DNA from: Imbricaverruca yamaguchii
Lineage: Eukaryota > Arthropoda > Thecostraca > Neoverrucidae
Assembly: GCA_034440575.1 (NCBI GenBank)
Contig: JAOTOL010001557.1
Coordinates: 701,001-765,000 of the forward strand
Reading direction: 5' to 3'
Length of the DNA: 64,000 bases
In this document: positions 490 to 63,735 of the stretch, in pieces
Position numbering within the stretch: position 1 is the first letter of the stretch
How the letters are laid out: every line of letters begins with the position of its first letter
Translations under genes and position numbers: made by a program
The notes under the pieces: model-generated
The model's input: only the letters and a program-made list of their open reading frames with translations
Database searches by the model: none
What the model was told of the DNA's origin: nothing

Positions 490-880
490 TCACCTGACCA
501 CCCGACCGCGGGTCCAAAGACCTTAACCCGACCACATGGTGGCGGGTCCCATGGTCTCACCTGACCACCTGGCGAATGGCCCCATGACCTCACCTGACCA
601 CCTGGCGGATGGCCAGATGGCCTTACCTGACCACCTGGTGACGGGTACAATGGCCTCCCATTTGATGATTAGGTGTTTTGGGCGTATCAACCAGGGTAGA
701 TCATTTAGCACCTATAACAGAATGACCTCCCTTTTGACCACCTGACGGAGGTTCTAATGGCCTCCATAGCCACACGACGGATGGTCTGACGGTCTCCCTG
801 ACCTCCTGGCTAATGGTCCGGCCGCTTGAACCTGACCACCTGACGGCGCATCCAACGGCCTCACCTGACCACCTGGTGGC
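490..880 (-). repeat. 33-bp minisatellite containing the COG1 exon 11 splice donor
   Basis: Units of about 33 bp read CCTGACCACCTGGCGGATGG on the plus strand and run from about 490 to 657. They resume in degenerate form from 721 to 880, after an interruption by a SINE-tail copy at 668-713. On the minus strand each good unit reads CCAGGTGGTCAG followed by GTGAGG, which is exactly the exon/donor junction of COG1 exon 11 at 865. The exon edge is therefore one unit of the array. Confidence 0.8.
668..713 (+). repeat. SINE-tail motif copy inside the 33-bp array
   Basis: The block GATTAGGTGTTTTGGGCGTA then TCAACCAGGG then GATCATTTAGCACC matches the dispersed tail motif and interrupts the 33-bp minisatellite, so it was probably inserted after the array formed. 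Confidence 0.6.
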
Positions 881-1129
881 GGGTCCCGGCCCGCAGTGTC
901 TCGGCCAGTCGACAGCTGTCGGCCCACTTGTCGAACGGCTCGGTGGTGGCGGTGGCGGTGGCGGCGGGCGGCGGACGCAGTTCCAGACCGTCATCCAGCG
1001 CCGGCCGGCCCGGCTCCGCCGGTGTCGTGTACACACACACGTCCGTCAGCAGGTGGGCCAGCCGACCGTCCAGAGCGGCGCACAGCTCCTGCACGACTGC
1101 ACTGTGGCCGCGGGAGCGCAGAACCAGAC
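865..1129 (-). CDS. COG1: COG1 exon 11
   Basis: The exon reads [20 protein letters not shown] and onward to [20 protein letters not shown], matching the part of COG1 that has a conserved SALDS-like block followed by a FDRYADA-like block. The acceptor is GGGACAG and the donor GTGAGG. An Ala/Thr/Pro low-complexity linker from a GCC repeat lies in the middle. It is the last exon in the window and leaves two bases for the next exon, which is not present in bases 1-864. Confidence 0.85.
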
Positions 1130-63518: not shown

Positions 63519-63735
63519 TGTCCGGTGGCTGGCTGGTGACCCCAGGTCACCTCAGACCCGTCAGGCGGCGCTCCCCGGGTCATGTCGGATCCGCTAGATG
63601 GTGCCCCCGGGTCATCTCAGATCCACTGGGTATCCGGTCGCCTCAGACTCGCTGGATGGTGTTCCCTGGATCACCTTAGACTCGCTGGGTAGTGTTCCCT
63701 ATGTCGCCCCACACCGACTGGGTAGTGTTGCTGGG
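63507..63735 (+). repeat. Degenerate 37-bp repeat starting at the GLS stop codon
   Basis: GCTGAGTAGTGTCCGG spans the stop. Downstream it recurs as GCTAGATGGTGCCCCCGG, GCTGGATGGTGTTCCCTGG and GCTGGGTAGTGTTCCCTAT, each followed by GTC(A/G)(C/T)CTCAGA-like sequence. Confidence 0.8.

What the first reader, a model, noticed from the sequence alone, without database searches (positions are those of the whole stretch)
490..63735. Minisatellites seeded on exon edges across three genes
At least eleven exon edges in COG1, GLS and the nested oxygenase are themselves one unit of an adjacent tandem repeat. Donors: COG1 exons 4, 9, 11; GLS exons 3, 5, 10. Acceptors: GLS exons 6, 7, 11. Stop codons: oxygenase and GLS. 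Unit lengths differ (30 to 114 bp) and sequences are unrelated, so this is a recurring process, not one repeat family. One known idea that fits is intron gain or expansion by tandem duplication of exon segments containing AGGT. Others are recombination or replication slippage at splice sites, or loss of selection as soon as the repeat passes the exon edge. It yields strings of decoy splice sites in real genes.
Basis: partly seen in the sequence, partly recalled or inferred. Interest (0 to 1): 0.9.

Follow-up and report, generated by a model that had tools for sequence, protein, structure and literature searches.

The report
Barnacle exon edges copied into minisatellites
In a barnacle, tandem DNA repeats often contain the edge of a gene's exon together with its splice site, so the real splice site stands in a row of near-identical decoys; this works like the "mirages" described in lancelets, and so far nothing proves that the repeats aim at exon edges.

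Summary
The window is barnacle DNA: COG1 (minus strand), an intronless carotenoid oxygenase nested in a COG1 intron, and GLS. All six claimed donors are one unit of an adjacent array. Of three claimed acceptors, one array abuts its exon without entering it, one is borderline, one is unsupported. The oxygenase stop lies in an array; the GLS stop is weak.

The same occurs outside the window at 12 of 114 further edges, 6 of 84 in four conserved genes. A PRPF8 acceptor and a GLS-paralogue donor stand in rows of 15 and 45 matches.

Edges lie in arrays as often as noncoding DNA does (18 of 157; density predicts about 20). They exceed a null that lets arrays enter exons by one unit only (about 5.4), but in the four conserved genes the excess is not significant (6 against 3.0, P 0.08).

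Best reading: frequent tandem duplication, blind to exon edges and tolerated there because an intact splice site survives. It works like lancelet "mirages"; my searches listed none in an arthropod. Intron gain by tandem duplication is not supported.

The parts
21146..22107 (-). Array at COG1 exon 4 donor, unit 114 bp; exon ends at 22067, so 41 bp of exon are in the array; 7 copies counted downstream, all with GT
   Evidence: a 261-bp genome query across this edge reported matches at this locus only; same edge repeated in A. amphitrite protein P0122
15651..15759 (-). Array at COG1 exon 9 donor, unit 37 bp, exon ends at 15726; 2 copies counted downstream
278..887 (-). Array at COG1 exon 11 donor, unit 33 bp, exon ends at 865; 6 copies counted downstream
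45354..45545 (+).
50778..51101 (+).
61223..61586 (+).
62152..63235 (+).
51430..51510 (+). Possible degenerate repeat of GTTTTCAG at the GLS exon 7 acceptor; borderline
11709..12402 (+). 31-bp array containing the last codons and the stop of the carotenoid oxygenase; the protein tail after VHGLWV differs from its three closest relatives
63533..63729 (+). Degenerate 33-bp array 3' of the GLS stop; reaches the stop only weakly
1..27284 (-). COG1, exons 1-11; further exons lie left of the window
10161..11765 (+). Intronless carotenoid oxygenase (RPE65 family, 534 aa) inside COG1 intron 9
39402..63518 (+). GLS, 12 exons, 650 aa

Best explanation
This genome makes short tandem duplications (units mostly of about 20-120 bp) often enough that roughly 5-15% of the noncoding sequence at seven of the eight loci examined, and 45% at one, lies in diverged repeats. 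The process does not see exons. A duplication that spans a splice site leaves one intact copy in the right place (the outermost donor, or the last acceptor), so it is tolerated; one that would spoil the exon is removed by selection. Later rounds lengthen the array on the intron side. The exon copy stays under purifying selection while intron copies drift, leaving rows of decoy sites. Shown: the arrays, the edge copies, conserved exon sequence inside the units, the same in other genes. Inferred: neutrality, slippage or unequal exchange as the cause, and correct splicing.
For: Edges are inside arrays at the density of noncoding DNA: 17 of 139 against 18.1 expected, 18 of 157 against 20.4 with POLR3B. 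Outside the window donors and acceptors are hit alike (5/57 and 7/57), and a stop codon is hit too. For four of the six donors (COG1 E4; GLS E4, E6, E11) the exon part of the unit is conserved in other species, so exon sequence was copied into the intron. A query across the COG1 exon 4 edge found copies at that locus only. The same COG1 edge is repeated in another barnacle's predicted protein with a different unit (114 bp here, 24 aa there).
Against: Against a null where arrays may enter an exon by at most one unit, edges are over-represented: 17 against 4.9 (0 of 5000 runs), outside the window 11 against 3.7, P 0.0014. Copied donors keep GT in 27 of 32 copies although other positions are 77% identical; positions -4 to +1 are well kept in general, so this may be alignment. 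Units share some splice-like words.
Confidence: 0.68

Rival explanations
1. The duplication process prefers splice-site sequence: a core such as GGTGAC / AGGTGA, close to the donor consensus AG|GTGAG, promotes expansion, so arrays start at donors more often than by chance.
For: GTGAC in 11 of 25 window units against 2.0 (family-wise P 0.004), GGTGACG in 5 of 25 against 0.095 (family-wise P 0.005). Outside the window GTGAC in 26 of 119 arrays against 11.8, GGTGAC 13 against 3.4. Placement excess.
Against: Outside the window these are not the leading words: CACAG leads (31), the mean of the null maximum is 23.9 for 5-mers, GGTGACG is in 4 arrays (0.98 expected, null maximum mean 6.4) and CGTCA is not enriched, and that set includes arrays on exon edges, which bring in AGGT by themselves. 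In oriented gene bodies AGGTGA is 9 sense and 0 antisense in 67 arrays first counted as free of edges, but 6 of the 9 are pieces of edge arrays, four at one C899 donor, and AGGTCA runs the other way (1/6). 3 of the 6 seeded donors are G|GTGA donors against 3 of the other 16 (sequences). Acceptors are hit as often outside the window.
Confidence: 0.15
2. Introns were gained by tandem duplication of an exon segment containing AGGT, the array being the remnant.
For: GLS intron 6, with a 30-bp array at its donor, is absent from both paralogues.
Against: None of the six seeded introns shows donor-acceptor similarity beyond its null. COG1 intron 4 is probably shared with A. amphitrite, as inferred from its two predicted proteins. 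Both paralogues also lack GLS intron 7, which has no donor array.
Confidence: 0.05
3. The arrays are kept because they do something: the decoy donors bind U1 or allow in-frame protein variants.
For: GT kept in 27 of 32 copies; 45 matches to a strong donor word in C899; parts of the PRPF8 array (96-bp unit) and the P0122 unit (24 aa) can be read in frame.
Against: Several unit lengths are not multiples of three (37, 31, 86, 47); no RNA data; in recent arrays other positions are kept as well as GT (COG1 E4).
Confidence: 0.1

Closest known systems
Lancelet 'mirages' (globin BflGb6/9, Adh3, troponin C, PGBD5)
   Same: Minisatellite-like tandem copies spanning an exon-intron boundary, at either end of introns, units of 10-160 bp, copies carrying AG/GT signals (passages of PMC3087553 and PMC3902484).
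   Different: A barnacle rather than a lancelet; at least one edge in each of the eight loci examined here. Splicing and length instability were looked at in lancelet, not here.
Intron gain by tandem genomic duplication (Rogers model, as cited in PMC3087553)
   Same: Tandem duplication of sequence with AG|GT.
   Different: In the six seeded introns the donor and acceptor contexts are not copies of each other.
Ordinary minisatellites in introns
   Same: Same unit lengths, degenerate copies.
   Different: The terminal unit contains coding exon sequence and the functional splice site.

Membership tests
[quoted passage not shown]
   6 of 43 window edges and 12 of 114 others
Lancelet-type mirage | Both 5' and 3' intron ends can be duplicated | tested here: met
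   outside the window donors 5/57 and acceptors 7/57; in the window donors only (6/22, 0/21)
Lancelet-type mirage | Many copies keep AG/GT signals | tested here: met
   GT in 27 of 32 copies of six donors
Lancelet-type mirage | Normal mRNA splicing is not disturbed | not testable with these tools
   no RNA; two annotated A. amphitrite COG1 proteins disagree, one without and one with the repeats
Lancelet-type mirage | Copy number differs between alleles or cells | tested here: inconclusive
   one query, across the COG1 exon 4 edge, reported no second contig, so no allele could be compared
Intron gain by tandem duplication | Intron ends are copies of the same duplicated AGGT segment | tested here: not met
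   0 of 6 seeded introns, 1 of 22 introns in all, and that one by 5 against 3
Ordinary intronic minisatellite | Array lies wholly in noncoding DNA | tested here: not met
   23-44 bp of exon inside the array at the six donors

The most novel reading that the evidence does not exclude
In barnacles tandem expansion is drawn to splice sites, through a donor-like core motif or a transcription- or splicing-coupled break, and the same exon edges expand again and again in different species and paralogues, so that introns are continually rebuilt from copies of the exon ends.
Probability: 0.17. Interest if true: 0.85.

Novelty: new member of a known kind. Interest (0 to 1): 0.58.

Why it matters
It extends a phenomenon described in lancelets to an arthropod and suggests it is common in this genome. 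It gives natural test cases for splice-site choice: a donor in a row of 45 matches to the same donor word, and an acceptor of PRPF8, itself a core splicing factor, in a row of 15. It also warns annotators: one A. amphitrite COG1 model contains such an array as protein.

Tried and rejected
Donor-only rule: the window gave 6/22 donors and 0/21 acceptors (Fisher P 0.02), and scanning for the first AG seemed to explain it; outside the window acceptors are hit as often (5/57, 7/57), so dropped. Strand-biased AGGTGA in arrays: 6 of 9 traced to pieces of edge arrays. Preferential retention of GT: few copies, chosen at 55% identity or more, and a possible alignment effect. COG1 exon 8 donor as a further case: nothing. 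BLAST self-comparison missed short offsets and was supplemented by an autocorrelation scan. Literature: searches; the top 10-20 titles and abstract starts listed by each (none) show no paper on mirages in barnacles or other arthropods, but some searches matched far more papers than were listed. Of papers I saw only these listings, and passages of PMC3087553 and PMC3902484. The founding Adh3 paper is not held; I know it only as cited there.

Which genes were blind: PRPF8, CLTC and POLR2B were chosen by family before any look at their repeats (5 of 66 edges, 2.49 expected, P 0.10). POLR3B came with the same family search as POLR2B, but I modelled it last, after seeing repeats of its contig and a duplicated exon start; it adds 1 of 18. 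The GLS paralogues and further COG1 exons were taken because of their family, not their repeats.

Rows dropped before counting: PRPF8 24 junctions, 22 resolved, one of these left out as poor; C899 seven resolved, two left out, one of which failed because of its array and later proved the strongest case (not in the 12 of 114); further COG1 exons four of five junctions resolved, three used; CLTC 6 of 8, POLR2B 6 of 8, POLR3B 9 of 12 junctions resolved. The PF00562 hits on C1166 and the PF00637 hit on C1188 were not used. PF04998, PF02889 and PF08920 were asked for and never answered. In CLTC and POLR2B the coding mask was approximate.

Full report
What the window is. The best GLS matches are from Pollicipes pollicipes (80-87% identity), the best COG1 match is from Amphibalanus amphitrite (63%), and the best oxygenase matches are from Pollicipes (67%), an unnamed source (64%) and Amphibalanus (63%). 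The window is therefore barnacle DNA, and by identity from neither of the two named species (inference). It is contig C1324:701001-765000 of a 767-Mb assembly in 1430 contigs. COG1 runs on the minus strand, an intronless RPE65-family oxygenase lies in its ninth intron, and GLS runs on the plus strand. Joined exons give an open GLS frame of 650 aa and a partial COG1 of 556 aa. An automatic model agrees at 10 of 11 GLS donors, 9 of 11 GLS acceptors and 9 of 10 COG1 introns, the tenth being unresolved; one of its two acceptor errors is the decoy copy at 51470.

The edges. For each of 43 edges I scored how well the 40+40 bp around it match any place within 1 kb, and how well they match the flanks of 33-41 other edges. 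Their arrays take in 23-44 bp of exon. For GLS E4, E6, E11 and COG1 E4 this exon part is conserved in other animals, so the exon is the source and the intron holds the copies. Acceptors are weaker: an array abuts GLS E12, E7 is borderline and E8 is not supported. The oxygenase stop lies in an array, and the protein tail after VHG.WV differs in all three closest relatives. The GLS stop is weak.

Is it more than chance? In the window 12.5% of intronic positions lie inside arrays, so density alone predicts about 5 of 43 edges; 6 are seen. But an exon edge can only be the last unit of an array, so a stricter null places each array at random and lets it enter an exon by one unit at most. With 26 arrays consolidated by hand this predicts 0.36 straddled donors and 0.71 straddled edges; with 35 automatic arrays 1.20 straddled edges (P 0.001).

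Replication. I fetched the two GLS paralogues (C1428, C899), further COG1 exons, and four conserved genes: PRPF8, clathrin heavy chain, POLR2B and POLR3B (how blind each choice was is told under Tried and rejected). Exon models of these four used human or other animal sequences printed in alignments to solved structures. Straddled edges: C1428 2/14, C899 3/10, further COG1 exons 1/6, PRPF8 3/42, CLTC 1/12, POLR2B 1/12, POLR3B 1/18. The four conserved genes together: 6/84 (95% interval 2.7-14.9%), 3.0 expected under the placement null, P 0.08. All edges outside the window: 12/114 against 4.24, P 0.0015. Everything: 18/157 against 5.4, P 2e-5 (Poisson sums), while density predicts 20.4. So the phenomenon is general here, edges are not spared, and a special attraction to them is possible but not established. 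The window itself came to me because it looked striking, which inflates its own figure.

Striking cases. In C899 a word spanning the donor of the exon ending in SGQFAFK matches 45 times, the real donor included, at mostly 30-31 bp spacing over 1.8 kb; the same edge is expanded in C1428 (11 matches), but not in the window's GLS. In PRPF8 a 16-bp word spanning the acceptor of the last modelled intron occurs 15 times, the real one included, mostly at 96-bp spacing; that array enters the exon by about 30 bp. In A. amphitrite one annotated COG1 protein (P0122) contains 11 copies of VRDATLQQLE, the end of exon 4, mostly 24 aa apart, and the other (P0121) one: the same edge as here, with a different unit. 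COG1 exon 12, just left of the window, has a 29-bp array ending near its acceptor with CAG repeated.

Relatedness of units. They are not wholly unrelated in the window: GTGAC is in 11 of 25 (2.0 expected). Outside, 26 of 119 (11.8 expected), but other words are as common and the longer core GGTGACG does not stand out. Part of the signal comes from arrays that contain donors, so it is a lead only.

Mechanism. I favour blind, frequent tandem duplication with selection deciding only how far an array may enter an exon. Not shown: the molecular cause, and that splicing is normal. Intron gain by tandem duplication fails the similarity test in all six seeded introns.

Known kind. Lancelet mirages have the same anatomy (passages). 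In the searches named under Tried and rejected I saw no report for an arthropod.

Noticed in passing
window 31248-32147, minus: TPR-containing reading frame with a DUF5588 match below the curated cut-off (C8orf76-like, name recalled) between COG1 and GLS.
   Followed up: no
window 8436-9425, minus: Frame that looks like the RNase H end of a non-LTR retrotransposon (recalled resemblance; the 193-aa piece scanned had no Pfam match), with a 33-bp duplication inside.
   Followed up: no
window 46241-46603: Degenerate CCTAA-type repeats resembling the arthropod telomere unit TTAGG (recalled), inside GLS intron 5.
   Followed up: no
window 38638-39154: 86-bp array with TGACGTCA in its unit just upstream of GLS exon 1; 3 of 25 window units contain TGACGTC.
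   Followed up: partly
C899 and C1428 (L009-L015): Two further GLS paralogues in this genome with partly different intron positions; introns 6 and 7 of the window's GLS are absent from both.
   Followed up: partly
C899 216001-256000 (L012-L015): 45% of noncoding positions lie inside repeats within 1 kb, three to nine times the other loci.
   Followed up: no
L016 9442-9862: 29-bp array of 13 copies at the COG1 exon 12 acceptor, with at least two upstream copies of GTCTGTTTRCAG.
   Followed up: partly
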